A stretch of DNA of 29,481 nucleotides, from positions 1 through 29,481 of IMG/VR virus record IMGVR_UViG_3300019135_000035; one strand, given 5' to 3'. Under the pieces are notes generated by a model that saw only the letters and a program-made list of their open reading frames with translations, did not search any database and was not told the origin of the DNA. Shown here piece after piece: positions 1-28,432 of the stretch. Source of the DNA: a virus. The first letter of the stretch is position 1, and every line of letters starts with the position of its first letter. A program made the position numbers and the translations under genes.

Positions 1-27
1 GTTTGTAAAAAATGCAACGGCAAGTAA
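1..27 (+). CDS. 3' end of cassette gene 4 (zinc ribbon), copy 0, cut by window edge
   Basis: The last codons visible read C-K-K-C-N-G-K-stop (4-27), which matches the C-terminal CKECNRY of the zinc-ribbon gene that precedes the nuclease in cassettes B, C, D and E. Its stop codon (TAA 25-27) overlaps a possible ATG at 27 and lies 5 nt before the preferred tnpB start at 33. This shows that the tnpB at the left edge is the end of another copy of the same cassette. Identification rests on position and the CxxC tail only. Confidence 0.6.
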   Translation, partial: VCKKCNGK

Positions 28-32
28 TGGAA

Positions 33-1187
33 ATGTCCGAAAAGATTATTAAAACTTATAAATTCAGACTTTATCCAAGCAAGGCTCAAATTAAAAGTTT
101 AGAGCAGACTTTGGATATTTGCCGCGAGTTGTATAACGCCGCTTTGCAGGAACGCCGCGATGCGTGGAAATTGAATCGCGTTTCGGTTGGCTTTTTCGAC
201 CAGAGCAGACAATTACCTGAAATTAAAACGATTCGCGGCGACGTTGCCGACGTAAACAGCACGGTTTTGCAGGACGTTTTGCGACGCTTATCGAAGACTT
301 TCGACGCTTTCTTTTCCCGCGTCAAAAAAGGCGAAAAAGCTGGTTTTCCGCGATTTAAAAATCAAAATAGATTTAACTCATTTACTTATCCGCAAGTCGG
401 CAATTCATCGGTCAGAATAGAAAATAACAAGCTGAATCTGCCGAAAATCGGCAAAGTTAAAATAAAACTTTCGCGCCTTGTCGAAGGTCTAATTAAAACC
501 TGCACGATTAAAAGAGAAATTGATAAATGGTTTGTTCTGTTTTCGGTTGAAACGTCGCCGGAAACGCTGCCGAAAACGTGCAAACAAATCGGCATTGACG
601 CCGGAATCGAATCTTTTGCGACGCTTTCGGACGGCACACAGATTGAAAATTTCAGATTCTTTGAACGAACTCAAAAACAATTAAGAAAAGCGCAAAGAAA
701 AGTCGCGCGGCGAAAGAAGTTTTCCAATCAATGGCGCAAAGCCGTTAAACAGGTTTCTAAAATTCACGAGAAAATTAAACACCAGAGAAGCGATTTTCAA
801 CATAAAATCTCGACGAAACTAGTAAAAGATTTTGACTTTTTAGCAATCGAAAACCTGAACATTCGAGGAATGAGCAGAGGCTTTTTAGCCAAACAAATCA
901 ATGATGCCGGATGGAGCGGCTTCTTTCAAAAACTGAAATATAAAGCTGAAAACGCTGGTAAATCGGTGATGGAAGTCAGTCCCAAATGCACATCTCAAAC
1001 CTGCATTTGCGGCGAAACAGTAAAAAAGGACTTATCCGTTCGCTGGCATCATTGCCGGAGTTGCGGATTGTCGGAACACCGCGATGTTGTTTCGGCAAAA
1101 GTAATTCTGCAACGTGCGCTCGGACAGAGCGTTAAAACGCAAACGTATGCCGTTAGGCAAAGCGTAGTTTTAGAATCTGCTTTATAA
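33..1187 (+). CDS. tnpB: TnpB RNA-guided nuclease, cassette copy 0
   Basis: This 384-residue protein is a TnpB (IS200/IS605 OrfB family), the omegaRNA-guided ancestor of Cas12. It has the N-terminal KTYKFRLYP motif, a RuvC nuclease with D189 (IGIDAG), E273 (AIENLNI) and D351 (EHRDVVSAK), and an inserted zinc finger C324-x-C326 ... C341-x2-C344, so it looks catalytically intact. I chose ATG 33 (MSEK) because it aligns with MSEKTIKTYKF of copy C; ATGs at 12 and 27 are also in frame. It belongs with copies C and D in one sub-clade (TSQTCICG finger); A and B form another (TSQNCSGCG). No TnpA is nearby; instead it follows the conserved cassette gene 4. Its 3' flank runs into a methylase gene fragment. 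Confidence 0.93.
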   Translation: MSEKIIKTYKFRLYPSKAQIKSLEQTLDICRELYNAALQERRDAWKLNRVSVGFFDQSRQLPEIKTIRGDVADVNSTVLQDVLRRLSKTFDAFFSRVKKGEKAGFPRFKNQNRFNSFTYPQVGNSSVRIENNKLNLPKIGKVKIKLSRLVEGLIKTCTIKREIDKWFVLFSVETSPETLPKTCKQIGIDAGIESFATLSDGTQIENFRFFERTQKQLRKAQRKVARRKKFSNQWRKAVKQVSKIHEKIKHQRSDFQHKISTKLVKDFDFLAIENLNIRGMSRGFLAKQINDAGWSGFFQKLKYKAENAGKSVMEVSPKCTSQTCICGETVKKDLSVRWHHCRSCGLSEHRDVVSAKVILQRALGQSVKTQTYAVRQSVVLESAL

Positions 1188-1220
1188 ATCAGAGTGTCAA
1201 AGCCACGAAATGACGGATTT
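1110..1220 (+). ncRNA. candidate omegaRNA 3' end and guide of TnpB copy 0
   Basis: TnpB omegaRNAs overlap the tnpB 3' end and end with a guide taken from the flank. The stretch from about 1146 shares blocks with the same region of copy C (ACGTATGCCG-TAGGCAAAGCG, TTTAGAATCT, GAGTGTCAA). A short TCTG...CAGA hairpin sits at about 1175-1194. The flank after GAGTGTCAA (1201 on) reads AGCCACGAAATGACGGATTT, which encodes H-E-M-T-D, a motif of D12 adenine methylases. The boundary is uncertain because the stretch from 1183 can also be read as methylase sequence. Confidence 0.45.
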
Positions 1221-1258
1221 TATAAAACAGAATGTCAATCGCACGAGATGACGAATGA
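1183..1258 (+). repeat. imperfect tandem duplication of a methylase segment at the TnpB-0 3' flank
   Basis: 1183-1200 (TATAAATCAGAGTGTCAA) and 1221-1238 (TATAAAACAGAATGTCAA) agree at 16 of 18 bases. The stretches that follow encode H-E-M-T-D and H-E-M-T-N-D with a synonymous GAA/GAG difference. The left unit coincides with the predicted guide of TnpB-0; the right unit is part of the methylase remnant. Confidence 0.7.
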
Positions 1259-1330
1259 TTTGCACCGAGAGTTTGCGGAGTTGCTTTACGCGCTTAAAGG
1301 ATTCGTCGTTTTGAGCGGTTATTTTTCGAG
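1221..1330 (+). pseudogene. fragment of a D12-class DNA adenine methylase gene
   Basis: The translation YKTECQSHEMTNDLHREFAE and the following LLYALKGFVVLSGY match the C-terminal part of Dam/D12-class N6-adenine methyltransferases, where a HEMT..DH segment is followed by K-G-x-V-x-L-S-G-Y. Both ends are missing: it starts at the TnpB-0 flank, and after LSGYFS (about 1330) the family pattern is lost where cassette A begins. It is probably not functional. The likely source is a phage methylase gene disrupted by cassette insertion or recombination. Confidence 0.7.
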
Positions 1331-1399
1331 ATGTGCCGCAAATAATAAACAACCGAACAGAATTAAAATAACGGGCTTGCTAATTTTCATAATCCCTTT

Positions 1400-2095
1400 T
1401 TAGTCGTTATTCTTATTTTTAGGTTTGTCGAGAGTTCTCACTATTCCAAGTGTAAGAAAGAAAAGCAAAGTGATTATTATACTCACAGAAGCACTAAAAA
1501 CTCCGCTAATAATTAACGCAAAAAATGCGCCAAACATAAGCCCGGCAGCACTGAAAAATAGCTGCTTAACTGGAAACTCTCTAAGTTCTTTAACTTCTCG
1601 AACTCCGATAATTCTTGTATCTGGCTTAAAACTAAATTTTTCTCCATTTATTAAGGCTTTTATTTTAATAAAGTCTTTGCTGTTGAGTAATAAAGGTTCA
1701 ACTGCGATAAATTCATCGTCAAATGAAATTGACGGGTTAAGGTTTTCAGGCTTTGTTGAGACTACTTCGGCAGATAAAATCTGAGTACCACCGAAAAAAC
1801 TGAAATATAACGGCTTTTCAAAATCACCAGTCGCAATTGGCTGATTTCCGTCATTTATTATTTTTAGAACAAACAAACGGACGTTTTTAACAGGCGTTCC
1901 TTTATAGAGAATTTGTAAATCGTTTTTTATTTCTTCGCTTGTACTTAGAAGCGGCGTATTAGAGATAACTTCATAGGATAAAGATTTTTTGCTTCTTTGC
2001 AATAAATAAATTACAAATCCGGCAATGATAGCTAAAACCGCTATTCCTGAACTGATAATGAATTGCCAAGAAGTGTCACGAAGTATTTCGTTCAT
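1400..2095 (-). CDS. membrane protein with N-terminal anchor and C-terminal membrane hairpin, cassette A cargo
   Basis: A 231-residue protein. Residues about 12-32 (FIISSGIAVLAIIAGFVIYL) form a transmembrane segment, followed by a roughly 130-residue, beta-rich domain (SYEVISNTPLLS ... VKNVRLFVLKIINDGNQPI), then two closely spaced hydrophobic segments at about 178-220. I recognise the SYEVIS...PLL...LKIIN.G..PI pattern from widespread uncharacterised bacterial membrane proteins but know no function. It starts 3 nt after the stop of the 414-residue gene, so the two are probably co-transcribed with the cassette A regulator. As lysogenic cargo it could act in exclusion at the cell envelope; that is inference from position. 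Confidence 0.8.
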   Translation of the reverse strand: MNEILRDTSWQFIISSGIAVLAIIAGFVIYLLQRSKKSLSYEVISNTPLLSTSEEIKNDLQILYKGTPVKNVRLFVLKIINDGNQPIATGDFEKPLYFSFFGGTQILSAEVVSTKPENLNPSISFDDEFIAVEPLLLNSKDFIKIKALINGEKFSFKPDTRIIGVREVKELREFPVKQLFFSAAGLMFGAFFALIISGVFSASVSIIITLLFFLTLGIVRTLDKPKNKNND

Positions 2096-2098
2096 TCA

Positions 2099-3343
2099 TT
2101 AAGCCTTATCCTTAAAAAGTTTTTTCAATCGTCGCCAAATCTCGGCAATATTCACATCGGCAACTTTTGCGTCATAAGTTTTCAGCGAAACGATTCCTTC
2201 AATCAAATCTTCTTTGTCCGTGACTTTTCTGCGCGGTGTGACATCCTTTACCGAGCTTGAAATATCACCGCTTAATAATCGTTTTTGCTGGTCAACAGTC
2301 AATTGCAAAAGTTGAATAGTGGTGTCTTTTAATTCAATAGCAGATTCGGCTGCTCGTAATTCCGCTTTGACTAAAGATAACTGCCCTTTGAAATGTTGAA
2401 TGTTGGCGATGTGTCTTTGCAGTTCTATCTCGGTCGAAGCGTCTGGATAAGCATCAATCGGACTTGCAGGTAATTGCAAATAAACTTCCAAAGCCGTGCG
2501 AATCTTATCGAGAGCTTGTTCTGGGTTTTCCGGCGTAACAGTAAAAAGAACCTGTCCGGCTTCGTGGCTTAAATCGGAAGTAGCTTTAACGCCCAAATCT
2601 CGCAGAAATTGAGAGAAATATATTAGATATTGCTCGCACGGCGCTTTGACTTCATCGGGAAAGTCGAAGGTTAAAACGATAGAATTATCTTGTTTTAACG
2701 ATAAAAGTTTGCTTTCGACTTGTCGGTGAGCTTCAGCTAATCCGACAAGCAATTTATTTATAGACGGTTCAAAAGGCGAATCTATAATTTCAAAGGACGC
2801 GATTCCTTCTAGACTTGAAGTAAACAGCCTTTCGTTTTTATAAGCCGTAAGCTTTATTCCCAGCTGTTTATTAGTATTTATAAGATTTAAAAACTCTTCT
2901 AAGTATTCGCTAAAAGTATATCTCCTTGACCAGTTAGATAAATCAGGCTCAAAAATAAAAGACACTTCAAAAATGCTTTTATAAGGAGAAGAAGTTCTTA
3001 TTATAGGGCGCAAAAACTCTGGAATGTTTTTGTATTGGTTTGATAAATTCGTGAATTCCGAGATTGAAATTTCTACATATCTTGGACTTAAAGAAATATA
3101 AGAAAGAAAGGGTAATTCATTAATATTAGAATTAAATGAAATATTTTCAAAAAATGACGGGAATTCTGTAAATTTGTGAGATAACAGTGTTTTGCTTGTT
3201 CCGGTATCGAGCGACCTAATTGTATAAGTTAAGCTATTTGGGCGAAACCACACACCAACTTTTGAATGCTCAATATTCTTGCCGTCTATATATATCGTAC
3301 CGAAATTTTCTTTTTCAGGGTCTTCGCGTTTTATTTCTATCAT
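2099..3343 (-). CDS. unknown 414-residue protein with C-terminal coiled coil, cassette A cargo
   Basis: I do not recognise a defined family. The N-terminal half is beta-rich with no membrane segment. A segment at about 225-295 (FDFPDEVKAPCEQYLIYFSQ, then FLRDLGVKA) resembles a short domain I have seen in other bacterial conflict-type proteins, but this is weak. Residues about 305-355 look like a coiled coil (LQRHIANIQHFKGQLSLVKA). The C-terminus is basic. The gene lies between the HTH regulator and the membrane protein gene, with 3 nt to the latter, so the pair may work together, for example as a cytosolic sensor and a membrane partner. Confidence 0.75.
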   Translation of the reverse strand: MIEIKREDPEKENFGTIYIDGKNIEHSKVGVWFRPNSLTYTIRSLDTGTSKTLLSHKFTEFPSFFENISFNSNINELPFLSYISLSPRYVEISISEFTNLSNQYKNIPEFLRPIIRTSSPYKSIFEVSFIFEPDLSNWSRRYTFSEYLEEFLNLINTNKQLGIKLTAYKNERLFTSSLEGIASFEIIDSPFEPSINKLLVGLAEAHRQVESKLLSLKQDNSIVLTFDFPDEVKAPCEQYLIYFSQFLRDLGVKATSDLSHEAGQVLFTVTPENPEQALDKIRTALEVYLQLPASPIDAYPDASTEIELQRHIANIQHFKGQLSLVKAELRAAESAIELKDTTIQLLQLTVDQQKRLLSGDISSSVKDVTPRRKVTDKEDLIEGIVSLKTYDAKVADVNIAEIWRRLKKLFKDKA

Positions 3344-3405
3344 CTGCTTTTTACCCTTTAGTTTTTGCTTTTGACGGTCTGCCTGCTTTTGTCTGTAAAA
3401 TAACT

Positions 3406-3606
3406 TTATTCGTTAATAGACTTTTTAAGTTCTTCGATTTTCCGTTTCTCCAGCGCCTCGAAAATTAAATCCATCCATTCAGGAATTTCAACCGCGCCCG
3501 TTTCGTAGCGTGAGATTGTGTTCGTTGCAACGCCTAAAATTTTTGCCAAGTCAACTTGCGTTAATCCTAATCTCTCGCGCTTTTGTTTTAATTCTGCTTT
3601 TTCCAC
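3406..3606 (-). CDS. HTH (Xre/Cro-type) repressor of cassette A
   Basis: A 66-residue protein that is little more than an HTH_3 domain: LKQKRERLGLTQVDLAKILG then VATNTISRYETG. GTG 3606 is preferred over the upstream TTG at 3642 because a predicted promoter (TTGCGA, 17 nt, TATATT on the minus strand, 3642-3614) ends 7 nt before the GTG, implying a leaderless mRNA as for the other cassettes' regulators. It faces away from the SWIM-operon promoter and probably represses it by binding the ACACA/TGTGT repeats in between, while maintaining its own expression and that of the cargo. Confidence 0.85.
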   Translation of the reverse strand: MEKAELKQKRERLGLTQVDLAKILGVATNTISRYETGAVEIPEWMDLIFEALEKRKIEELKKSINE

Positions 3607-3745
3607 GTTGCTGAATATACATAAATTGTTTATAGCTCGCAAATTCCTGTATTAATATCTACACAATGTGTTGACATATCAGCAAAATGTGTAGTAAAAT
3701 TTATTTGCAAGTCAGAAATGACTAATCAACAACAGGAGACAAAAA
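3607..3745 (+). promoter_or_regulatory. divergent control region of cassette A: promoters, operator and 5' hairpin
   Basis: The plus-strand promoter is TTGACA (3671-3676), 18 nt, TAAAAT (3695-3700), predicting a start near 3707. CTACACA (3659-3665) and TGTGTAG (3688-3694) form an inverted repeat bracketing the -35 box, the likely operator. AGTCAGAAATGACT (3710-3723) forms a 5-bp stem with a GAAA loop at the very start of the mRNA, conserved in B, C and D. AGGAG (3734-3738) is the ribosome binding site for ATG 3746. The minus-strand promoter TTGCGA-17-TATATT serves the regulator. Confidence 0.75.
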
Positions 3746-4051
3746 ATGATTGAACTGAAAACCCGCCGGGAACTCGAAAACGCAATAAATAAAGCTAAAT
3801 CCGAAGCTAAAAACTTGGTCGTTCGGATGACTAACGCATCGCGTATGTATCGCGTCGAAAGCAAACAAAGCGGCAATGTTTACACCGTCAATTTCTTTAT
3901 CAGAAACAATCGCAGGTACGGGCATTGCAGCTGCAAAGCGGGACTAAACAATCTCGCCTGCAAACATCTGGCTGCTGCGGCGGCTCTAAATATGTCTTTG
4001 GCTGAACGCGGACTTCTCCAAACACGAAAACCAGCCGTGAGTGTTGGTTAA
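3746..4051 (+). CDS. SWIM zinc-finger protein, cassette gene 1, copy A
   Basis: A 101-residue protein. Residues about 62-75 give the SWIM zinc signature C-x-C-x(n)-C-x-H (CSCKAGLNNLACKH), preceded by a basic N-terminal half (IELKTRRELENAINKAKSEA) and strands with a conserved YRVES...YTVNFF pattern. SWIM fingers bind DNA or protein partners and occur in transposases, SNF2 ATPases and recombination partners; free-standing small versions have no assigned role. It is the first gene of the operon, has a strong AGGAG site, and is separated from gene 2 by a conserved terminator hairpin, so it is probably made in excess. Nearly identical to copies B and D; copy C has a different SWIM protein here. 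Confidence 0.85.
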   Translation: MIELKTRRELENAINKAKSEAKNLVVRMTNASRMYRVESKQSGNVYTVNFFIRNNRRYGHCSCKAGLNNLACKHLAAAAALNMSLAERGLLQTRKPAVSVG

Positions 4052-4055
4052 AACA

Positions 4056-4090
4056 AAAAGCAGAGGTGATTCGCACTCACCTCTGCTTTT
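4056..4090 (+). terminator. intra-operon terminator/attenuator after SWIM gene, cassette A
   Basis: AAAAGCAGAGGTGA (4056-4069) and TCACCTCTGCTTTT (4077-4090) pair perfectly over 14 bp with a 7-nt loop and end in four T's. It lies between genes 1 and 2 of one operon, so it should attenuate the downstream nuclease genes rather than end the operon. Copies B and D carry the same arms; copy C has a different sequence forming a similar hairpin. Confidence 0.85.
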
Positions 4091-4123
4091 CTACCTTCCA
4101 TTAAAAAACGAAAGGAACCAGTT

Positions 4124-4459
4124 ATGTCTAAGAATACAACAAATATCTTATCGCTTCCAAAATTAGCGATAAAGCTCAATACACGAATCACGGATTCGTG
4201 TCCGCTCTGCGGTGAAGCGACAAATCCCAATATCGGAGTCGAGGTGGTTGACGATGAAACGGGACTGGTCGTTTGCCGACGTTGCACGCTCCGACACGCG
4301 CCTGAATTGGCTTATTTGATGTCGTTGTCCGATACCGCAAGATTACTTGCCGTTTCGGAGCGCGAATTTGGCGTTAAATACGAAAACAATTTCAGTTGGA
4401 ATGAATTCAGCGAGCGCGACAACGTGATTCAGTTTCCCGTAATGGAGGTGGCGAGATGA
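4124..4459 (+). CDS. C4 zinc-finger protein, cassette gene 2, copy A
   Basis: A 111-residue protein of unknown family. A four-cysteine zinc finger is formed by CPLC (about residue 26) and CRRC (about residue 49), separated by a conserved GEATNPNIGVEVV stretch; this is followed by a helical segment APELAYLMSLSDTARLLAVS and an acidic, variable C-terminus. The start is ATG 4124 behind AAAGGA. The stop overlaps the next gene's ATG (ATGA, 4456-4459), indicating translational coupling. The conserved ARLLAVSEREFG helix could be a DNA- or partner-binding surface, but no function is known to me. One copy exists in every complete cassette. Confidence 0.85.
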   Translation: MSKNTTNILSLPKLAIKLNTRITDSCPLCGEATNPNIGVEVVDDETGLVVCRRCTLRHAPELAYLMSLSDTARLLAVSEREFGVKYENNFSWNEFSERDNVIQFPVMEVAR

Positions 4460-4941
4460 TTTTTCCCGACACTCCGCACGGTAACGCAAAATCCGCATTA
4501 GAGGTTTTATTCAAAATCAAAGCATTGTTCCGGCTCTTGATTCTGATTGACGATGAAAACAGTCTCGCCAAAATGAGCGAAATGGATTTCATCGAGACGA
4601 TTCAAACGACGGGCGAATTAGGCGAGGATGAGGTTGGCAAAGCGGTTCATTTTGTTTCGATGATTGAAACTCAAACAAATGATTCAACCGAAAGTCTTGA
4701 GGAAAGATTCACTTTGCCCGCGCTCGTTTCAGCCGTTCTCAAACACCGGGACGCGCCTGAGCCTTTAACGGATTGTATCGGCGACGCATTATCGTTTATG
4801 TCGCAATACGCCGACCGGGACGCGCCGCACACGATTGAAGTCTTTCTCGACGCTTATCGCAGAAACGGCGACGGCGCGCGTATCGAAGTCACCAGAGCGA
4901 ACGGCGTTTCCGTTGTCGGAGAAGATGAAAGCTCGGCTTGA
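4456..4941 (+). CDS. helical protein with invariant C-terminus, cassette gene 3, copy A
   Basis: A 161-residue, mainly helical protein without cysteine pairs or membrane segments; family not recognised. The N-terminus DTPHGNAKSALEVLFKIKAL and following LFRLLILIDDENSLAKMSEM is highly conserved between copies; a central stretch (about 70-95) varies; the C-terminus RIEVTRANGVSVVGEDE is almost identical in all copies. That last stretch also contains the start region of gene 4, which may explain part of its constraint. It overlaps gene 2 by ATGA and gene 4 by 17 nt. In copy A the C-terminus ends GEDESSA rather than GEDEGEI. Confidence 0.8.
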   Translation: MIFPDTPHGNAKSALEVLFKIKALFRLLILIDDENSLAKMSEMDFIETIQTTGELGEDEVGKAVHFVSMIETQTNDSTESLEERFTLPALVSAVLKHRDAPEPLTDCIGDALSFMSQYADRDAPHTIEVFLDAYRRNGDGARIEVTRANGVSVVGEDESSA

Positions 4942-5179
4942 AAAGCTCCGCAGGAAAATCTGTCAACTGCCGACGGAAGAGCAATCTTTTATTCGGCAGT
5001 TGATTGAAGTCGTTGAAAGAGAAGTTGACCGGAAATTGATGGAAAAATCAGGCGCGGTCAAATGGTGCGGCAAAGGAAAGCATTTCGTCCTGCGCTCGAA
5101 TTTTTACGCTCGCAAAAACGGTTTGCGCGCCGAATGCAAGGATTGCGGTTATGGAAAGAAAAATCTGCAAAACTTATAA
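4925..5179 (+). CDS. zinc-ribbon protein related to HNH-nuclease N-termini, cassette gene 4, copy A
   Basis: An 84-residue protein: an N-terminal helix (CQLPTEEQSFIRQLIEVVER) and a C-terminal zinc ribbon, KWCGKGKHFVLRSNFYARKN...CKDC. The F-Y-x-R-K-x-G-L-R-x-x-C-K-x-C pattern is typical of the zinc module found at the N-terminus of many phage HNH endonucleases; here it is a separate gene just before the nuclease slot. In copies B-E the protein stops after CNRY; in copy A it reads through CGYGKKNLQNL into tnpB, overlapping it by 29 nt, a sign that the tnpB joined here by a different junction. It starts inside the end of gene 3. Confidence 0.8.
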   Translation: MKARLEKLRRKICQLPTEEQSFIRQLIEVVEREVDRKLMEKSGAVKWCGKGKHFVLRSNFYARKNGLRAECKDCGYGKKNLQNL

Positions 5180-6248
5180 ATTCAGAATCTATCCGACGAA
5201 ATCTCAGGTGAAAACCTATGAGCATTGGCTGGATTTATGCCGCGAATTATACAACGCCGCTATGCAGGAACGGCGCGAAGCGTGGAAGCTCGAAAGAAAA
5301 AACATTACTTTTTTCGACCAGCAAAGGGTATTGCCGGAAATAAAAGCCGTTCGAGAAGATTTGGCGGAAATTTACAGCCAAGTTTTGCAGGACGTTTTGC
5401 TGCGATTGGATAAAGCATTTAAAGCGTTCTTTGCTCGCGTGAAAAAAGGAGAAAAAGCGGGCTATCCGAGATTTAAAGGCAAGAACCGTTACGACAGCTT
5501 CACGTTTACGCAAAGCGGCTTTGATTTAAATGATAACAAGCTGCGGCTCTCGAAAATAGGATTGGTCAAAATCAAACGGCATCGGAACATTGCCGGGAAA
5601 ATCAAAACACTCACGATTTCGAGAAGCAAAACCGGAAAATGGTTTGCCTGTTTTGTCGTGGAAACAGATGAAAATTTGCTTGAGCCGACCAATCAGCAAG
5701 TTGGCGTTGATGTCGGTATTAAATCTTTTGCCGTTTTATCCGACGGCGGCAAAATTGATAATCCGAAATTCTTTCGCCGTGATGAGAAAGACTTGGCAAA
5801 AGCGGAGCGAAAGAAAAACCGGAAACGAGCGGCAAAGATTCACGAAAGAATCAAAAATCGCCGCAATAACTTTATTCACCAAACATCTCGTTATTTGGTG
5901 AATAAGTTTGATTTGATTGTTTTCGAGAAGCTGAAAATCTCGAATATGGTCAAAAACAAATATCTCGCAAAAAGCATTTCCGATGCGGCTTGGGGAAAAT
6001 TGATTGAACTTTGTCTGTATAAAGCTGAGAACGCTGGACGGAAAATGATTCAAGTCAATCCTAAAAACACATCTCAGAATTGCTCAGGATGCGGCGCGAG
6101 CGTGAAAAAAGATTTGTCCGAACGTACGCATCATTGCATAGGCTGCGGTTTGACTTTAGACCGTGATTTGAACGCCGCCAAGAATCTTCTTGCTTTGGGA
6201 TTACAAAGCATTGGTAACCAATCCATAGAAGCCGCTTCCAATCGTTAG
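5151..6248 (+). CDS. tnpB: TnpB RNA-guided nuclease, cassette A
   Basis: A 365-residue TnpB with all catalytic features: D187 (VGVDVG), E259 (VFEKLKI) and D339 (LDRDLNAAKN) of the RuvC site, and the zinc finger C311-x2-C314 ... C329-x2-C332. The start is ATG 5151 (MERKICKTYKF), inside the end of gene 4. It is closest to copy B; the two share the NCSGCG finger and a common 3' scaffold sequence. At about 365 residues it is a little shorter than the roughly 400-residue TnpB of ISDra2. It is expected to cut DNA next to a TAM when guided by RNA made from its own 3' flank; a TnpA partner is absent. Confidence 0.94.
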   Translation: MERKICKTYKFRIYPTKSQVKTYEHWLDLCRELYNAAMQERREAWKLERKNITFFDQQRVLPEIKAVREDLAEIYSQVLQDVLLRLDKAFKAFFARVKKGEKAGYPRFKGKNRYDSFTFTQSGFDLNDNKLRLSKIGLVKIKRHRNIAGKIKTLTISRSKTGKWFACFVVETDENLLEPTNQQVGVDVGIKSFAVLSDGGKIDNPKFFRRDEKDLAKAERKKNRKRAAKIHERIKNRRNNFIHQTSRYLVNKFDLIVFEKLKISNMVKNKYLAKSISDAAWGKLIELCLYKAENAGRKMIQVNPKNTSQNCSGCGASVKKDLSERTHHCIGCGLTLDRDLNAAKNLLALGLQSIGNQSIEAASNR

Positions 6249-6294
6249 ATTGGCTGCGGAGTAATCACGCGGTTATCCGTCGAAAATCTACGAA
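6190..6294 (+). ncRNA. candidate omegaRNA 3' end and guide of TnpB-A
   Basis: The tnpB-A 3' end and the 26 nt beyond it align with the same part of copy B: TTAGATTGGCTGCGGAGTAA then TCACGCGGTT, against TTAAGTTGGCGGCGGAATAA then TCACAAGCGGTT. Similarity ends at GCGGTT (6269-6274), so the guide would start at 6275, ATCCGTCGAAAATCTACGAA. That guide is in frame with, and continuous with, the gene fragment that follows, so the presumed target is another allele of that gene. Confidence 0.55.
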
Positions 6295-6426
6295 GAACTG
6301 TTTGAAGAAAAAGGCTGGCAAAGAGTAGATAAAGAAGCGCGAATCTTAGGCGGCGGCAAAAAAACCGAATGTCTTTGGCTTAGCCCGCGCACTGTTGCAG
6401 CTTTGGATTCTCAAAATCAAAATTAG
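6274..6426 (+). pseudogene. C-terminal fragment of an unidentified phage gene next to TnpB-A
   Basis: An open frame from 6274 to TAG 6424-6426 reads YPSKIYEELFEEKGWQRVDK, then EARILGGGKKTECLWLSPRT and VAALDSQNQN. It has no start of its own and abuts the predicted TnpB-A scaffold, so it is the 3' part of a gene whose 5' part is absent from the window. The short winged-helix-like ending with a basic GGG-K-K stretch would suit the C-terminus of a phage primase/helicase-type replication protein, but I cannot name the family. Confidence 0.55.
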
Positions 6427-7004: not shown

Positions 7005-7010
7005 TTCCTG

Positions 7011-7117
7011 TTGACTTTTAAAACGAAAACTAATATAAACGATTGATGACGGTCGCATCTACCGAGAGCGGCATTCATTAAAACTCCCAATACAATCTAT
7101 CAACTTCTTAAAAGTGC
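7011..7117 (+). promoter_or_regulatory. phage promoter and leader, left copy, interrupted by cassette B
   Basis: TTGACT (7011-7016), 17 nt, TATAAA (7034-7039) is a sigma-70-like promoter. The leader that follows contains AACTCCCAATACAAT (7082-7096) and ends at the TnpB-B scaffold. The same arrangement, TTGACT-17-TATAAA then AACTCCCAACACAAT, is found at 11303-11400 on the other side of cassette B. The left copy has no gene to express because the cassette follows immediately. Confidence 0.6.
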
Positions 7118-7200
7118 AACCGCTTGTGATTATTCCGCCGCCAACTTAATTGATGGGAGCGACTTCTACGGATTTAATACCGATGCTTTGTAACCCCAAA
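7098..7200 (-). ncRNA. candidate omegaRNA 3' end and guide of TnpB-B
   Basis: Read on the minus strand, the tnpB-B 3' end and the following scaffold, ending GCGGTT at 7118, match copy A. The guide would begin at 7117, GCACTTTTAAGAAGTTGATA on the minus strand, which is antisense to the interrupted leader at 7011-7117. The homologous leader at 11303 onward is diverged at this site. Confidence 0.5.
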
Positions 7201-8243
7201 GCAAGAATATTTAGAGCGGCGTTTTCGTCGCGGTCTAAGGTTAGAGCGCAATTTGTGCAATGATGAACACGAACCGACAAGTCTTTTTTGACTAATTCGC
7301 CGCATCCAGAGCAATTCTGAGATGTGTTTCGCGGGTTGACTTGAATCATTTTCCGTCCGGCGTTTTCAGCTTTATACGAAGTCAGTTCAAATAATTTATT
7401 CCACGAAGCGTCATTGATGCTCTTAGCAAGTTTAGAGTTTTTGACCATATTCGAGATTCTTAATTTCTCGAAAACAATCAAATCAAAATTGTTTACCAAA
7501 TAACGGGATACTTGATGCGCAAAGTTATTGCGGCGATTTTTAATTCTTTCGTGAATCTTTGCCGCGCGTTTTCGGTTTTTCTTTCTTTGCGCTTTTGCTA
7601 AATCTTTTTCATCTCTCTTAAAAAATTTCGGGTTGGCAATTTCGCTGCCGTCAGAGAAAACAGCGTAAGACTTTATGCCGACATCAATTCCTATTTGTCG
7701 GTTAGTCGGCTCAAAAATTTCTTCTTTTGTTTCCACGACAAAACACGCAAACCATTTTCCCGTCGAACTTCGAGTAATCGTCAAAGTTTTGATTTTGCCG
7801 ACGATTTCACGATGCCATTTGATTTTGAAAAGTCCGAGTTTGGAAAGGTGAAGTTTGTTTCCTTTCAGAGCAAAACCGCTTTGTGCGAATGTGAAACTGT
7901 CATACCGATTTTTACCTTTGAAACGCGGAAAGCCCGCTTTTTCTCCTTTTTTGATTCGACTGAAAAACGCTTTGAAACCTTTGTCCAAACGCCGCAAAAC
8001 GTCTTGCAAAACTTGAGAATGGATTTCGGCAACATCTTCTCGAACGGCTTTGATTTCAGGCAAGACGTTTTGCTGGTCAAGGTAAGAAATACTTTTTCTT
8101 TCGAGTTTCCACGCCTCGCGCCGTTCGCTCAAAGCGGCATTATAAAGTTCACGGCACAATTCCAGAGTGTTCTCAAGTTTTGCGGTCTGGGACTTACTCG
8201 GATAAAGCCTGAATTTATAAGTTTTGATTACCGTTTTCGACAT
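7146..8243 (-). CDS. tnpB: TnpB RNA-guided nuclease, cassette B
   Basis: A 365-residue TnpB, closest to copy A. RuvC residues D187 (IGIDVG), E259 (VFEKLRI) and D339 (LDRDENAALN) and the zinc finger C311, C314, C329, C332 are all present, so it should be active. ATG 8243 follows the gene 4 stop by 3 nt (TGA-GTT-ATG), indicating translational coupling. Together with genes 1-4 it would be expressed from the cassette B promoter under the cassette B repressor. Confidence 0.94.
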   Translation of the reverse strand: MSKTVIKTYKFRLYPSKSQTAKLENTLELCRELYNAALSERREAWKLERKSISYLDQQNVLPEIKAVREDVAEIHSQVLQDVLRRLDKGFKAFFSRIKKGEKAGFPRFKGKNRYDSFTFAQSGFALKGNKLHLSKLGLFKIKWHREIVGKIKTLTITRSSTGKWFACFVVETKEEIFEPTNRQIGIDVGIKSYAVFSDGSEIANPKFFKRDEKDLAKAQRKKNRKRAAKIHERIKNRRNNFAHQVSRYLVNNFDLIVFEKLRISNMVKNSKLAKSINDASWNKLFELTSYKAENAGRKMIQVNPRNTSQNCSGCGELVKKDLSVRVHHCTNCALTLDRDENAALNILALGLQSIGIKSVEVAPIN

Positions 8244-8246: not shown

Positions 8247-8483
8247 TCAATAGCGATTGCATTCCTTGCAGGTCGAGCGCAGACCGCCCGTCTTTCGAGG
8301 GTAAAAGTTCGTACGCAAGACGAAGTGCTTGCCCTTGTTACACCATTTGACCGACGCGCCCCGGATTATCAATTTCCGGTCAATTTCGCGCTCCAAGACA
8401 TCAATCAACTGCCGAATAAAGATTTGTTCTTCGGTCGGCAGTTGATTGATTTTTAGTGCGATTTGCTCAAATCTCTCCTTCAT
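8247..8483 (-). CDS. zinc-ribbon protein, cassette gene 4, copy B
   Basis: A 78-residue protein: helix INQLPTEEQIFIRQLIDVLE, then WCNKGKHFVLRTNFYPRKTG and the end GLRSTCKECNRY. The single WC plus CKEC and the His of GKHF could make a C3H zinc site. I start it at the ATG giving MKERFEQ (8483), shared by copies C, D and E. It overlaps the end of gene 3 by 17 nt. It matches the N-terminal zinc module of HNH nucleases but has no nuclease domain of its own. Confidence 0.8.
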   Translation of the reverse strand: MKERFEQIALKINQLPTEEQIFIRQLIDVLEREIDRKLIIRGASVKWCNKGKHFVLRTNFYPRKTGGLRSTCKECNRY

Positions 8484-9293: not shown

Positions 9294-9328
9294 AACTAAC
9301 TCCTTTCGTTATTCATAATGGAAGGTAG

Positions 9329-9363: not shown

Positions 9364-9367
9364 TGTT

Positions 9368-16800: not shown

Positions 16801-16870
16801 AACAACCGCTCAATAAAATTTATCTAAACTTAAAGAGGCTCATAAAGAGTCTCTTTTGCTTTTGCGCGGA
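16801..16870 (+). repeat. leader/end repeat copy 1 with terminator hairpin
   Basis: Starts AACAACCGCTCAATAAAATT; its first 30 bases are identical at 20892 and 27061. The hairpin AAAGAGGCT...AGTCTCTTT (16832-16856) with T-rich tail follows. After TTTTGCG the sequence continues into a portal-upstream region shared with copy 2. Confidence 0.85.
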
Positions 16871-16941
16871 AAAGGGAAAGCCGCAAAATGCTTGAGAACT
16901 CACCGCTTTTTTACAACCGCCGCAACTTCTTACACCTTTTT

Positions 16942-17028
16942 ATGGAAACTCAAAATCCTGACATTTCAACAGCCGTCGAGCGTCTTTCAGCGCAGCGCTC
17001 ATCGCTTCAACAGTTTTACGATTATTGA
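16942..17028 (+). pseudogene. 5' remnant of a second portal gene (28 codons)
   Basis: METQNPDISTAVERLSAQRS then SLQQFYDY corresponds to the start of the intact portal (ELPNTSTADIKLAVERLSAQ, RQSLQVFYDYY). It is about three-quarters identical in DNA and stops where the TnpB-C scaffold begins: TTTTACGATTATT (17014-17026) is common to both portals, then the remnant runs into GACACTC of cassette C and a stop. The rest of this allele is missing except for the 3' remnant at 27124. Confidence 0.88.
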
Positions 17029-17110
17029 CACTCTCCAGCCTAACGCTGAATCTTGTTGCTTGGAGATTCTAAAGACACGCTTTGCCTATCGGCATACGTT
17101 ACGTCTTTAC
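17005..17110 (-). ncRNA. candidate omegaRNA 3' end and guide of TnpB-C
   Basis: On the minus strand the tnpB-C end contains ATCTCCAAGC...GCTGGAGA, which folds into a hairpin, followed by GTGTC(AA), as in copy 0. The guide would start near 17024: TAATCGTAAAACTGTTGAAG, antisense to the portal remnant. The intact portal (21118-21130) keeps the first 11 nt of this sequence and then differs. Confidence 0.6.
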
Positions 17111-18203
17111 GGGCAAGCCCTGCCCGATTAAGAATTATTTTTGCGCTGACAATATCACGATGCAGAGATAAACCGCATTTTTCGCATTTATGCCGACGAA
17201 CCGATAAGTTTTTCTTAACGCCCGCGCCGCAAATACAGGTTTGACTTGTGCCTTTGGCGTCAACTTTCCAAACTCTTTTACCAGCGTTTTCAGCTTTGTA
17301 TTCGAGTAGATTCAGAAAGTTTCCCCAACTCGCATCGGATATGCTTTTTGCAAGATGATGATTTTTCACCATATTGCGGATTTGCAGATTTTCAACTGCG
17401 ATTTCATCAAATCTTTTAATTAAATTCGTGCTTTGTTTGTGCAGGAAATCCAATCTTTGACGTTTGATTTTCAGGTGTTGTTTTCGTAGTAAACGAACTG
17501 CATCCTGACGGTTATTACTGCCTTTTTTCTTGCGCGACAGCTTTCTCTGCAAGCGTTTCAATTTTCTTTCGGCAACGCGCAAAAAGCGCGGATTTTCTAT
17601 TTTCTCGCCGTTCGATAGCGTTGCGAAATTTTCCAGCCCGACATCAACGCCGATTGTCGCGCCTGTTTTCTCAAGAAGTTGTTTTTCGATTTCAGCCGTA
17701 AAAATTACGAACCAGCCGTCAACCTCTCGTTTAATCTGACAGGTTTTGATTTTGCCTTCGATTTCACGGCTCAAGCGGATTTTAAAGCTGCCGATTTTGG
17801 AAAGAATCAACCTATCGCCTATCAATTTAAAACCTGCTTGCGGATAGCAAAACGAGTTATAGCGGCTTGCGCTTTTGAAACGGGGAAAACCCGCTTTTTC
17901 ACCTTTTTTGACTCTGCCGAAAAACGCTTTGAAAGTTTTGTCGAGGCGATTTAAAACATCCTGCAAAACCTGAGCATAGACCGCATTTAAATCTTCTCTG
18001 ATTTTTTTTACTTCCGGTAATTGGCTTTGTTGGTTTTTATGTGAAATCGAGATTAGATTAAATTTCCAAGCGTCGCGCCTTTCCTGTAACGCGGCGTTAT
18101 ACAACTCGCGGCAAAGCGTAAGTGTTTCTTCAAATTTCGCCGCAACCGCTTTTGACGGTCTGCAAATTTTGAATTTATAGGTTTTGATAGTCTTTTCGGA
18201 CAT
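17040..18203 (-). CDS. tnpB: TnpB RNA-guided nuclease, cassette C
   Basis: A 387-residue TnpB with RuvC D187 (IGVDVG), E271 (AVENLQI) and D350 (SLHRDIVSAK) and the zinc finger C323-x-C325 ... C340-x2-C343. ATG 18203 lies 10 nt after the gene 4 stop (AAAAAGG before ATG), a longer gap with its own ribosome site, unlike the 3-nt gap in B, D and E. It groups with copies 0 and D by finger type. The 3' flank is antisense portal DNA, so the predicted target is a portal gene. Confidence 0.94.
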   Translation of the reverse strand: MSEKTIKTYKFKICRPSKAVAAKFEETLTLCRELYNAALQERRDAWKFNLISISHKNQQSQLPEVKKIREDLNAVYAQVLQDVLNRLDKTFKAFFGRVKKGEKAGFPRFKSASRYNSFCYPQAGFKLIGDRLILSKIGSFKIRLSREIEGKIKTCQIKREVDGWFVIFTAEIEKQLLEKTGATIGVDVGLENFATLSNGEKIENPRFLRVAERKLKRLQRKLSRKKKGSNNRQDAVRLLRKQHLKIKRQRLDFLHKQSTNLIKRFDEIAVENLQIRNMVKNHHLAKSISDASWGNFLNLLEYKAENAGKRVWKVDAKGTSQTCICGAGVKKNLSVRRHKCEKCGLSLHRDIVSAKIILNRAGLARKDVTYADRQSVSLESPSNKIQR

Positions 18204-19293: not shown

Positions 19294-19325
19294 AAGCAAA
19301 GTCCTTTCTTAATTGATTGGATTGG

Positions 19326-19361: not shown

Positions 19362-19368
19362 TTTTGTT

Positions 19369-20891: not shown

Positions 20892-20960
20892 AACAACCGC
20901 TCAATAAAATTTATCTAAACTCAAAGAGGCTTTGAAGGAAGTCTCTTTTTCTTTTGCGCG
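20892..20960 (+). repeat. leader/end repeat copy 2 with terminator hairpin
   Basis: The 30-nt conserved start is followed by AAAGAGGCTT...AAGTCTCTTT (20923-20948) and T-rich CTTTTGCG. It ends cassette C cargo transcription and leads into the portal-upstream region. The region after it (GCGGAAAAGGGAAAG) is shared with copy 1. Confidence 0.85.
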
Positions 20961-21036
20961 GAAAAGGGAAAGACGGAACTTGGCTGAACTAACCGCTTTT
21001 TTACAACCGCAGCAACTTCTTACGCCTTTATTTACA

Positions 21037-22377
21037 ATGGAACTACCGAACACATCCACAGCGGACATAAAACTCGCCGTTGAGCGCCTCTCAGCACAGA
21101 GGCAATCTTTACAAGTCTTTTACGATTATTACGGCGGAAAACATCAACTAAACTATTCCTCGCAAAAGTTTAAAAACAAATTCGGGCGTCGCCTTCAGAG
21201 CCTCAGAGAAAACCTTTGCCGCGTTGTCGTCAAAGCTCCCGCCTCGCGGCTTGAAACAATCGGTTTCCAATCTGACTCAAAAGAAATCGAAAAAGCGGCG
21301 TGGGGCGTCTGGAAGCAAAACAATCTGCCGTTTAACGCCGGAAAAGTTCACCGCGAAGCGTTTAAAACCGGCTCTGCTTATGTCATCGTCTGGGCTGATA
21401 AAAACAATAAAGCGAGAATTTATCCGCAGGTTTCAAGCAACATTACGGTTTGGCGCGATCCGGAAACCGGCGAAATCAATAAAGCCGCAAAAATGTGGCA
21501 GGAAAATAAAAAATGGTTTTTGACGCTTTATTATCCGGACCGAATTGAAAAATACATTTCGGAAAACGAAAACAGCCGGGCTAGTTTTATCCCCCGCCGA
21601 GTGGAGGGTGAAGATTTTCCCTTAAAGAACGAATGGGGCGTTGTTCCGGTTTTTGAATTTGTACCCGAAGCGGAAACGGACGACCGCGGCGTTTCGATTC
21701 TTTCCGACGTAATTCCCTTAAATGACGTTCTGAATAAGTCCTGGAGCGACATCATCGGCGCTCAGGAAGAAAATATGCGCCGTCGCCGTTTTGTCGCCGG
21801 TCTGCAAGTCGAGACGGACGAAGAAACCGGAAAGAAAATCAATCCCTTTAAACCGGATGATGATGTTTGGATTGCGGGCGAATCCGAAACCAAATTCGGA
21901 GAATTTTCCGACGCCGATTTAACTAAAATGCTGGAAGTTCTTGACCGCGCGGTCAAAGCGATTGCATTGGTTTCGGGCATTCCGCCTTCATACTTCAACA
22001 TCGAGTCGGTCGGCACTGCTGTTTCGGGCGAGGCTCTGCGGAAAATCGAAGCTCGCTTTATCGCGATTGTGCAGGATGCTCAGCGTTCATTCGGCGAATC
22101 GTGGGCAAATGTGATGAGCCTTTGTCTCCAAATTGAAGACAAAAAAGTCGGTTCGATTGAAACGCAGTGGACGCCCGCCGCGCCCATCGGCGAACTTGAG
22201 GCTTTGGACATAAATCTTAAAAAACTTTCTTTGGGCTGGTCGGTAGAGCAAATTCAAAGGGATTATGGTTTAAGTGACACACAAATTTCTCTAATGGCTA
22301 AAGAAATTGATGAAAGAAAGAAAAAAGCAGTAGAAACCTCTGCTAAATTTTTCGACGGCGGAAGTCTATTTGAATAA
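21037..22377 (+). CDS. portal protein (Gp6/SPP1-like), intact allele
   Basis: A 446-residue portal, the dodecameric DNA gateway of the capsid. Typical elements are the N-terminal ERLSAQRQSLQVFYDYYGGK, the early helix LQSLRENLCRVVVKAPASRL, the GVVPVFEFVPEAETDDRGVS segment, SYFNIESVGTAVSGEALRKI, and the C-terminal QWTPAAPIGELEALDINLKK, LGWSVEQIQRDYGLSD. I start it at ATG 21037, not 20932, because the upstream region has a 5-nt length difference from the homologous remnant at 16942 and so is not coding. It differs from the portal remnants on both sides at the predicted target sites of TnpB-C and TnpB-D. Confidence 0.92.
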   Translation: MELPNTSTADIKLAVERLSAQRQSLQVFYDYYGGKHQLNYSSQKFKNKFGRRLQSLRENLCRVVVKAPASRLETIGFQSDSKEIEKAAWGVWKQNNLPFNAGKVHREAFKTGSAYVIVWADKNNKARIYPQVSSNITVWRDPETGEINKAAKMWQENKKWFLTLYYPDRIEKYISENENSRASFIPRRVEGEDFPLKNEWGVVPVFEFVPEAETDDRGVSILSDVIPLNDVLNKSWSDIIGAQEENMRRRRFVAGLQVETDEETGKKINPFKPDDDVWIAGESETKFGEFSDADLTKMLEVLDRAVKAIALVSGIPPSYFNIESVGTAVSGEALRKIEARFIAIVQDAQRSFGESWANVMSLCLQIEDKKVGSIETQWTPAAPIGELEALDINLKKLSLGWSVEQIQRDYGLSDTQISLMAKEIDERKKKAVETSAKFFDGGSLFE

Positions 22378-22378
22378 A

Positions 22379-22500
22379 GGCATCCGTCCACTGCGGCGGC
22401 AATCTACAAATTAAATTTGTAGATTCTCAAACAACGTACAAACTATTGTTTCACGTTAGCGTTTGAACGCTCTACCTGAGCGCGTTTTAAAATCACCTGA
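22379..22500 (-). ncRNA. candidate omegaRNA 3' end and guide of TnpB-D
   Basis: Minus-strand sequence after the tnpB-D stop forms a perfect hairpin, AATCTACAAATT and its complement around one base (22425-22401). Then comes GCCGCCGCAGTGGACGGATG (22400-22381). CGCAGTGGACG also occurs in the intact portal (22163-22173), where it encodes part of Q-W-T; the guide continues GATGCC instead of CCCGCC. The guide therefore fits a different portal allele. Confidence 0.65.
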
Positions 22501-23555
22501 GCCGACACTAAATCTCTGTCAGATTCAAGCCCGCACGAATCACATTTATGATTCCGAACGGCTAAAGTTTTCGGAACATTTGCCCCGCAAATACAAGTTT
22601 GGCTCGTGCCGTATGGCGAAACTTCAACCAATGTTCTACCAGCATTTTCAGCTTTGTAGCGTAATTTGAAGAAGAAACTAGACCAACTTGCATCTAATAC
22701 CTGTCTGGCTAATGCTCCTTTGCACAAACCTTTGATATTTAATTTTTCAATCGCTATCAAATCATTTTCAGAAATTATTTTTGTAGATATTTTATGCTGA
22801 AAATCGTTTCGCTGATTAAAGATTGTTTGATAAACCTTTTGCAGCAACAATAGTGCTTTTCTTCGGCGGTTGCTGCCTTTTTTTCGCCGTGCTACGTGGC
22901 GGTGCGCTTTTCTCAGTTTCTTTTGCGATTTTTCGGCTTCTCTTTGGTTGTCAATAATCGTGCCGGATGAAAGAGCGGCAAAACTTTTTAAACCGACATC
23001 TATACCGATTTCGTTTCCTGTTTTAGGTAACAATTTCGGCTCAAATTCAACAACTATAGAAACATACCATTTTCCACATTGACGTTTAACGGTTGCGGTT
23101 TTCATCTTCCCGTCAATATTCTGATGTTGTTTTATTTTTATTAAACCTAGACGCGAAAGATTAAATTTGCCGTTTTTAAAATTGTATCTTGTATTTGGCA
23201 CTGAGAATGAATTAAAACGGCGGTAACTTTTAAATCGGGGAAAACCCGATTTTTCGCCCCTTTTAACTCTGCGGTAAAAGCCTTTAAATGATTCATCCAA
23301 TCTTCGCAGGCAATTTTGAAAAACAGAAGAATTTACGTCTTTTAATTCAGGTCTTATTTGTTTAATTTCCGGCAACTGGTTTTGCTGGTCAAAATAATTA
23401 ACGGAGATTTGGTTTAATCGCCAAGCATCGCGCCGTTCCTGCAAAGCAGCGTTATATAACTCACAACAAAAACTTAGCCAAGTTTCGAGTTTTTCGGTTT
23501 GCGCTTTCGTTGGGTATATCCTGAATTTATAAGTTTTGATAACCGTTTTCGACAT
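22443..23555 (-). CDS. tnpB: TnpB RNA-guided nuclease, cassette D
   Basis: A 370-residue TnpB with D186 (IGIDVG), E270 (AIEKLNI), D348 (SDRDLVSAQ) and the zinc finger C321-x-C323 ... C338-x2-C341. ATG 23555 follows the gene 4 stop by 3 nt (TGA-ATT-ATG), the same junction as the unrelated nuclease of copy E. It belongs to the CICG sub-clade. Its C-terminal tail is short, so the presumed omegaRNA scaffold hairpin is just outside the gene. Confidence 0.94.
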   Translation of the reverse strand: MSKTVIKTYKFRIYPTKAQTEKLETWLSFCCELYNAALQERRDAWRLNQISVNYFDQQNQLPEIKQIRPELKDVNSSVFQNCLRRLDESFKGFYRRVKRGEKSGFPRFKSYRRFNSFSVPNTRYNFKNGKFNLSRLGLIKIKQHQNIDGKMKTATVKRQCGKWYVSIVVEFEPKLLPKTGNEIGIDVGLKSFAALSSGTIIDNQREAEKSQKKLRKAHRHVARRKKGSNRRRKALLLLQKVYQTIFNQRNDFQHKISTKIISENDLIAIEKLNIKGLCKGALARQVLDASWSSFFFKLRYKAENAGRTLVEVSPYGTSQTCICGANVPKTLAVRNHKCDSCGLESDRDLVSAQVILKRAQVERSNANVKQ

Positions 23556-27060: not shown

Positions 27061-27125
27061 AACAACCGCTCAATAAAATTTATCTAAACTCTAAGAGGCT
27101 CATTTGAGTCTCTTTTTCTTTTGCC
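27061..27125 (+). repeat. leader/end repeat copy 3 fused to portal 3' remnant
   Basis: The first 30 nt are identical to copies 1 and 2; hairpin TAAGAGGCTC...GAGTCTCTTT (27092-27116) and CTTTTTCTTTTGC follow. Copies 1 and 2 continue GCGGAAAAGGG, but here CCCACCGGCGAG of a portal gene follows at once, marking a recombination or insertion junction. Confidence 0.85.
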
Positions 27126-27321
27126 CACCGGCGAGAGCGAAACGCTCGACAACATGAATAAAAAACAGCGTCTCGGCTGGTCGAACGAACAGTTGCAGCG
27201 CGATTTCGGATTGTCTGATGAGCACATCAAAAAGATGACGGAAGAAAACCAGCGGCGCGCGGTCGCAGAATCCGAAGCAAAAGCTAAGATGTTCGATTCG
27301 GGAATGAGCTTGATGAGTTAG
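27124..27321 (+). pseudogene. 3' remnant of a second portal gene
   Basis: The frame reads PTGESETLDNMNKKQRLGWS, NEQLQRDFGLSDEHIKKMTE and ends SGMSLMS. It matches the intact portal's PIGELEALDINLKKLSLGWS, VEQIQRDYGLSDTQISLMAK at about half of the residues. It lacks everything upstream and a proper start. It begins where the predicted TnpB-D target ends. With the 5' remnant at 16942 it probably represents the original portal of the genome now flanking the insert. Confidence 0.88.
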
Positions 27322-27500: not shown

Positions 27501-28432
27501 CGCCGGAACAATTAGCAGCCGAGCAGCGCGCCTTTCTGATCAGAACCGAAAAGCAGTCGGCAATTTTGTTGGCGGCTGAATTCGACGCGCTAAAACGAGA
27601 GATTTCCGACTATTTGACAGCAACTTTACCCGGCGAAATTACGCTCGCCAAAATCGAGGAAAGAAACTTTCTCGCGCGGTTTTTGGACAAACTGACCGAA
27701 GAAATTGACATTTTGTCATCGCCGCTTGCCGTAGCGGTCGCCAGAGCGCAAAAACGAGTCATTAATTTTGCCGCCGATTCTCTGAAAAGATTCTTGCCGG
27801 AAATTAGAGCTTCAATTTTCGAGACTGACAAAGAAGCGATTCGACAATTAATCAACCGGACGCAGCGGGGCGAATCTTTGCTAAAAGCATTTTCGCGTTT
27901 GAGCGAGCCAATCGCGCTCAGAACCAAACAGGAATTGATTGAAGGTTTTCGAGAGGGCGAAACGGCGGCAAACATCGCAGCTCGGATTAACGATGTTTCA
28001 GATGTCGGATTGACTCGCGCGATGACGCTCGCTCGAACCGAAACAAATGAAGCATATCGAGCTGCAAGCCGTGACTTTTTTCGGGACGCGGATATTAAAA
28101 AATACGTCTGGTTATCTGTACTCGATGTGAGAACCTGTAGTCGCTGTTGGTTTTTACACGGAAAAGTCTTTAAAACCAAACATAAAGTCACAAGTCATCC
28201 CAATTGTCGTTGTACCCTTATACCAAAGCAGTCGAATATTGAAATTGTTTCAGGTGCGGAAAGGTTTGCCATTCTGAACGAAGGTTATCAAAGACAAATC
28301 ATCGGAAGTAGAAGGCTGGAAATGTATAAGCAAGGCGTTAAATTTGATTCGTTTTTCGACTCGCGCCAAACTGAACATTACGGAGAGCAGATTTTTATAA
28401 AACCGCTTGCCGATTTTTCAGATTACAGCTAA
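27497..28432 (+). CDS. MuF-like minor head protein
   Basis: A 311-residue protein. The N-terminal 150 residues are helical; the C-terminal third is the phage Mu F-like head morphogenesis domain: LARTETNEAYRAASRDFFRD, YVWLSVLDVRTCSRCWFLHG, KVF...SHPNCRCTLIP. Such proteins bind the portal and are packaged or needed in head assembly. It follows the portal-zinc protein block. Its 3' end overlaps the end of the antisense endonuclease of cassette E by 15 nt; the C-terminus (PLADFSDYS) may have been changed by that joining. Confidence 0.88.
   Translation: MTPEQLAAEQRAFLIRTEKQSAILLAAEFDALKREISDYLTATLPGEITLAKIEERNFLARFLDKLTEEIDILSSPLAVAVARAQKRVINFAADSLKRFLPEIRASIFETDKEAIRQLINRTQRGESLLKAFSRLSEPIALRTKQELIEGFREGETAANIAARINDVSDVGLTRAMTLARTETNEAYRAASRDFFRDADIKKYVWLSVLDVRTCSRCWFLHGKVFKTKHKVTSHPNCRCTLIPKQSNIEIVSGAERFAILNEGYQRQIIGSRRLEMYKQGVKFDSFFDSRQTEHYGEQIFIKPLADFSDYS

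What the first reader, a model, noticed from the sequence alone, without database searches (positions are those of the whole stretch)
1146..1330. TnpB-0 flank carries a second copy of a methylase motif next to the broken methylase
The predicted guide encodes H-E-M-T-D and is followed by the remnant encoding H-E-M-T-N-D-L-H-R-E, with synonymous differences (GAA/GAG). Upstream, 16 of 18 bases also match. This is what one expects if the guide came from one methylase allele and the flank from another. A methylase is also a plausible competitive target between phages.
Basis: partly seen in the sequence, partly recalled or inferred. Interest (0 to 1): 0.68.

Follow-up and report, generated by a model that had tools for sequence, protein, structure and literature searches.

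The report
Gene-cutter's guide from another phage's allele
In a bacterial virus, an RNA-guided DNA-cutting element sits inside a broken DNA-methylating gene with two of its end-plus-guide segments in a row, each copied from a different version of that gene, which looks like the scar of viruses recombining where these cutters strike.

Summary
Window 1181-1218 and 1219-1256 are two in-register 38-nt units (31/38 identical; best of 301 Markov controls 25/38). The upstream half that "also matches" is not methylase. It is the right end (RE) of the T0 TnpB element, and the second copy (1219-1238) is a truncated RE. Intact methylases in two related Pyrinomonadaceae prophages align from exactly 1239 and have a Tyr codon where the window has RE sequence. 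The structure is therefore RE1 | 18 nt of methylase allele A (the T0 guide) | partial RE2 | methylase allele B. Both alleles encode SHEMT, with AGC against TCG for Ser and GAA against GAG. Random drift would rarely keep that (P about 2e-5 to 2e-4), so two alleles is the better reading. A phage methylase matching the guide 18/18 exists, but it is distant. I read the site as a recombination scar between two methylase alleles that each carried this element at the same codon. The wider context (stumps of methylase, portal and, in a relative, small terminase beside TnpB cassettes) supports TnpB-driven homing.

The parts
12..1187 (+). T0 tnpB, 391 aa (RNA-guided nuclease)
   Evidence: Pfam OrfB_IS605 1.1e-27, Cas12f1-like_TNB 7.8e-19; aligned with four other tnpB of the window
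1173..1200 (+). RE1, right end of T0: GAAT, short inverted repeat TCTG...CAGA, terminus GTGTCAA
   Evidence: same terminus in T3 and in the G001 homologue; RE family in the class. RNA folding gave no significant structure
1201..1218 (+). guide 1: 18 nt of methylase allele A, SHEMTD (a 20-nt guide would run to 1220)
   Evidence: follows the RE terminus; 18/18 match in methylase of L117
1219..1238 (+). RE2, truncated second right end (loop, 3' arm, terminus)
   Evidence: 18/20 to RE1; G001 RE ends CTGAATGTCAA; not present in methylases, which have Tyr here
1239..1331 (+). 5'-truncated remnant of D12 methylase, allele B
   Evidence: tblastn to intact prophage methylases starts at 1239: 83% G001, 68% G091
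1332..6268 (+). T1 cassette that splits the methylase: cargo 1400-3343, HTH 3406-3642, module ORFs 3746-5179, tnpB 5151-6248, RE ending AATCAC
   Evidence: flanked by methylase pieces on both sides; ORFs, Pfam
6269..6426 (+). 3' part of methylase, starting with the T1 guide GCGGTTATCCGTCGAAAATC
   Evidence: 65% G001, 60% G091; guide 17/20 to G091 methylase
7146..8243 (-). T2 tnpB, same right-end type as T1
16801..17024 (+). stump A' of portal gene (leader plus start), abutting the T3 right end; its last bases are the T3 guide
   Evidence: direct repeats with 20892-21130; guide 17/20 with 13-nt seed to G001 portal
17040..18203 (-). T3 tnpB
20932..22377 (+). intact portal gene, allele B, 5 mismatches to the T3 guide
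   Evidence: PHROG portal 3.9e-75
22443..23555 (-). T4 tnpB, right end next to the 3' end of portal B
27061..27321 (+). portal remnant C: leader copy plus C-terminal part, middle missing
28418..29137 (-). homing-endonuclease-like protein in the slot that tnpB takes in the other cassettes
   Evidence: PADLOC HEase 3.4e-9, DUF559 5e-6; preceded by module ORF 29141-29389

Best explanation
T0 is an IS200/IS605-type TnpB whose guide is the DNA next to its right end. At 1173-1331 the order is RE1, 18 nt of methylase allele A, a truncated second right end RE2, then allele B. This is an out-of-register recombination or repair junction, offset by 38 nt, between two phage genomes (or genome copies) that both carried a T0-type element after the same methylase codon but in diverged alleles. 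Shown: the two RE-flank junctions, their identical position in the gene, the allele-like codon differences, and the splitting of the same methylase by a second TnpB cassette (T1). Inferred: that TnpB cutting of element-free alleles, followed by repair from the element-bearing phage (homing), brought the alleles together; and that T0 now programs TnpB against allele-A-type methylases that lack the element, while the resident remnant B is not a target.
For: The 38-nt units are real. RE2 has the terminus of T0, T3 and the G001 element. Methylase homology begins exactly at 1239, and relatives read TAT|TCN CAY GAR ATG there. AGC/TCG and GAA/GAG changes keep SHEMT; simulated chance of SHEMT plus N/D with 5 random changes is 2e-5 to 2e-4. 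A natural methylase carries guide 1 exactly. Wider pattern: T1 joins a left methylase flank that runs at least 12 nt past the site to a right flank differing from it. T3 abuts portal stump A' with an intact divergent portal B across the cassette. In prophage G001 a 67%-identical TnpB abuts a small-terminase stump, with an intact copy carrying 5 of 20 mismatches to the guide across the cassette. The 18-nt allele-A piece lies within the 15-21 bp from the TAM at which ISDra2 TnpB cuts (PMC8612924, passages). T4 homing nucleases give co-conversion of flanks (PMC2988022, passages).
Against: No close relative with allele A was found. No other contig shows an RE-HEMT junction: 7 pattern hits, none a methylase. 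No TAM could be fixed from T0, T3 and G001. The left side of T0 is off the contig. The small mismatch numbers of the intact alleles to the guides are about what background allele divergence would give, so they do not prove selection for escape. A TnpB near the G091 prophage shows neither module nor stump-plus-copy. No sequencing reads were available to exclude a mis-join at 1218/1219.
Confidence: 0.6

Rival explanations
1. Slippage duplicated a 38-nt RE-plus-guide unit within one element, and the two copies drifted apart; only one methylase allele was ever involved.
For: The units are exactly tandem and in register; the methylase is already dead here, so drift is allowed.
Against: Five changes in 18 nt that keep SHEMT and N/D are improbable under drift, 2e-5 to 2e-4; Ser AGC and TCG differ at all three bases; the RE part changed less (2/20) than the guide part (5/18).
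Confidence: 0.2
2. RE1-guide1-RE2-guide2 is a functional two-guide unit: the single 5' arm TCTG can pair with either CAGA arm, so one TnpB could use either guide, a primitive array.
For: Both 3' arms are complementary to the one 5' arm by sequence; in the fold of 1165-1258 the distal pairing is the predicted one.
Against: Fold z-scores are not significant (0.47 to -1.58); RE2 lacks its own scaffold; by eye no second full right end among the 28 other TnpB 3' regions printed (L125 has a second TGTCAA 34 nt on but no arm); no RNA data.
Confidence: 0.07
3. Assembly artefact: two strain variants of the same locus joined end to end.
For: Virus record from an assembly collection, ending at both sides in repeated module sequence.
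Against: The units differ at 7 of 38 positions, so an assembler would be expected to make a bubble rather than a serial join; the mixed-allele pattern recurs at portal in this contig and at small terminase in a separate genome.
Confidence: 0.08

Closest known systems
IS200/IS605 TnpB with omegaRNA (ISDra2; PMC8612924, passages read)
   Same: TnpB domains, guide taken from DNA beside the right end, TCAA-like terminus (the last recalled from IS608)
   Different: No tnpA recognised in the window; the tnpB genes follow directly on accessory ORFs; the flank here is a mosaic of two alleles with a second truncated right end
TnpB gene drive in plasmids (PMC11870625, abstract and passages)
   Same: guide records the insertion site and would cut element-free copies
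   Different: here between phage alleles, with a cassette of about 5 kb and recombination scars; not shown experimentally
Intronless homing by free-standing phage nucleases (PMC2988022, passages)
   Same: nuclease genes beside conserved phage genes, allele replacement around the site
   Different: nuclease is RNA-guided; cassettes carry accessory ORFs, HTH and cargo; one cassette has a homing-endonuclease-like protein in the same slot

Membership tests
IS200/IS605-type TnpB | OrfB_IS605 and Cas12f1-like TNB domains | tested here: met
   catalytic-type conserved D, E, D columns by eye
IS200/IS605-type TnpB | right end with conserved terminus directly followed by target DNA | tested here: met
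   methylase at T0 and T1, portal at T3
IS200/IS605-type TnpB | TAM next to the empty site | tested here: inconclusive
   T0 xTAY, T3 TAA, T1 TTGA or CTAA, from relatives or own flank; no common motif fixed
IS200/IS605-type TnpB | linked tnpA transposase or left end | tested here: inconclusive
   no tnpA recognised among the window ORFs listed; only 20 window ORFs went to Pfam in all; left end of T0 off the contig
D12 class DNA adenine methylase (remnant) | homology to D12 methylases | tested here: met
Homing element | occupies a site that is empty in relatives | tested here: met
   intact methylase in G001 and G091 and intact portal in G001 at the T3 site
Homing element | nuclease cuts element-free alleles and is copied in | not testable with these tools
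   needs cleavage and co-infection assays
CRISPR-like array | several identical repeats with full scaffold and different spacers | tested here: not met
   two unequal repeats, second lacks scaffold, spacers lie in the same gene

The most novel reading that the evidence does not exclude
Pyrinomonadaceae phages use TnpB as an RNA-guided homing nuclease in a swappable cassette (HTH and cargo || SWIM-like, zinc-finger and other small ORFs, nuclease). The cassettes target core genes (methylase, portal, small terminase), keep the stump of the targeted allele as guide, and, for essential genes, carry an intact guide-mismatched allele: a natural cleave-and-rescue drive. The tandem right ends at T0 record repeated homing at one codon.
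Probability: 0.3. Interest if true: 0.85.

Novelty: new variant of a known kind. Interest (0 to 1): 0.57.

Why it matters
TnpB is abundant and its natural role is debated: retention in the genome, or a drive. A guide and flank from different alleles, at the same codon, in a phage full of such cassettes, is sequence evidence that TnpB guides act across phage lineages. If the stump-plus-intact-allele pattern is a rule, phages carry a natural cleave-and-rescue drive, testable in laboratory strains.

Tried and rejected
1) 'FYK[ST]ECQ is methylase': rejected; intact methylases have Tyr then SHEM, and homology starts at 1239. 2) Close relatives in viral contigs by methylase, module, portal or T0 TnpB: none; module in genome contigs: none; module ORF 18434-18961 in the phages collection: none. 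3) Guide 1 in Blastocatellia with 2 mismatches or fewer: 31 places in 28 of 162 genomes against 13 for the reversed-pattern control, none on a contig with a methylase match. 4) Other phages with an RE-HEMT junction: 7 pattern hits, all chance. 5) RNA folding of the RE: not significant. 6) T2 stump 7056-7124: no source gene found. 7) G091 TnpB near the integrase: no module and no duplicated target, against a universal rule. 8) Module search with A4 in 162 class genomes: one weak match, G111, not followed. 9) A common TAM: not found. 10) Loci of G094 fetched; only the portal matched.

Full report
What is there. The window is a 29,481-base virus record. It carries five tnpB genes, T0 to T4; T1 to T4 are 55-59% identical to T0. 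T1 to T4 each follow a set of small ORFs whose copies are in part much more alike than the TnpBs: 68-94% to the first row for the last ORF, and about 91% for three of the four SWIM-like ORFs, the fourth being 34%. That the first ORF is SWIM-like is my reading of its cysteine pattern; Pfam gave no match. At 28418-29137 the last module ORF is followed instead by a homing-endonuclease-like protein (PADLOC HEase 3.4e-9).

The observation. 1201-1218 encodes SHEMTD and 1239-1256 SHEMTN, the latter followed by DLHRE. The whole units 1181-1218 and 1219-1256 match at 31 of 38 positions; among 301 Markov sequences of 185 nt the best was 25 of 38. So the repeat is not chance.

The correction. In D12 methylases the residues before HEM are DPPY..TR...Y-x. 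Intact methylases lie in two prophages of the host clade. One is in G001, which is Pyrinomonadaceae bacterium cam-2 (locus L011); the other is in G091. Both read TAT then a Ser codon, CAC/CAT, GAA/GAG, ATG. Window homology to them starts exactly at 1239 (83% and 68%). What precedes it, TTTATAAAACAGAATGTCAA, is instead a right end: T0 ends CAGAGTGTCAA, T3 GGAGAGTGTCAA, and the G001 TnpB (67% to T0) CTGAATGTCAA. In 28 TnpB 3' regions printed from the class (29 rows, one empty), many end GAGTGTCA or TAATCAC-like after a stem. That GAAT and TCAA are the pairing partners in IS608-type ends is recalled, not tested.

Two alleles or one. The guide parts differ at 5 of 18 bases. In simulation, 5 random changes keep SHEMT and N/D with frequency 2e-5 to 4e-5 (uniform changes) or 1.6e-4 to 2.1e-4 (transition-biased). 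A degenerate scan of viral contigs for TAY-AGY-CAY-GAR-ATG-ACN-GA gave 5 contigs, all with methylase similarity; one, L117, has the 18-nt guide exactly. L117 shares only the methylase with the window, so it shows that the guide is a natural methylase sequence, not that L117 is the source. Against this, no methylase in 162 class genomes matches within two mismatches. The three class methylases with a Ser codon visible (L078, L079, L080) use TCN, like copy 2.

The surroundings. The rest of the methylase lies at 6269-6426, after the T1 cassette. The T1 left flank continues at least 12 nt in gene coordinates past the point where the right flank begins, with different bases (TTT against CCG). T1 therefore also seems to join two alleles rather than showing a clean insertion. 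The T1 guide matches the G091 methylase at 17/20. The T3 guide matches the G001 portal at 17/20 with a 13-nt seed, and its own intact portal at 15/20. T3 abuts a portal stump (16801-17024) and an intact divergent portal lies across the cassette; a third portal remnant is at 27061-27321. In G001 the TnpB right end abuts the first codons of a small-terminase allele, with the intact small terminase across the cassette differing from the guide at 5 of 20. G001 also has a second module copy followed by HNH-type and endonuclease-VII-like ORFs (read by eye). These patterns suggest homing cassettes with exchangeable nucleases. The mismatch counts are within ordinary allele divergence and do not by themselves show selection. 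A TnpB near the G091 prophage shows none of this.

Mechanism. ISDra2 TnpB cuts 15-21 bp from its TAM and takes about 16 nt of flank as guide (PMC8612924, passages). T4 homing nucleases cause co-conversion of flanks and allele exclusion (PMC2988022, passages). TnpB can act as a gene drive in plasmids (PMC11870625, abstract and passages). I infer that repeated homing or recombination at one methylase codon between phages with alleles A and B left RE1-A-RE2-B. The 18-nt length of the A piece fits the cutting range but is one case.

Print check. Searches for TnpB with homing and phage; right end and tandem; bacteriophage, IS605 and competition; homing endonuclease; and prophage with allele (listings and starts of abstracts only) showed no listed title or abstract start describing this mosaic guide-flank scar or TnpB cleave-and-rescue cassettes in phages. 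Subscription papers are not covered.

Noticed in passing
3746-5179, 8247-9670, 18214-19683, 23559-24985, 29141-29389: Repeated module of small ORFs upstream of each nuclease. ORF X (A4) and ORF Y (A1) gave no relatives in viral contigs; A4 also none in genome contigs, one X copy none in phages, and one weak match in 162 class genomes. Diverged SWIM-like and X-like ORFs occur in prophage G001.
   Followed up: partly
20018-20863: TIR-like / nucleoside deoxyribosyltransferase-like protein (PADLOC TIR effector 1.8e-9; Pfam Nuc_deoxyrib_tr 2.4e-7) as cassette cargo; possible defence gene.
   Followed up: no
16801-17024, 20892-22377, 27061-27321: Three portal copies or pieces with the same leader and a terminator-like hairpin (by eye), separated by the T3 and T4 cassettes.
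   Followed up: partly
L053:3977-3996 and L052 (G001:C7:1135996-1136412): G001 TnpB guide lies in a small-terminase 5' stump; the intact small terminase elsewhere differs at 5 of 20 guide positions.
   Followed up: yes
28418-29137: Homing-endonuclease-like protein with cysteine-rich repeats in the tnpB slot, overlapping the end of the head gene (27497-28432).
   Followed up: partly
7005-7128: T2 right flank, possible gene stump HLPRAAFIKTPNTIYQLLKSATA; no source found.
   Followed up: partly
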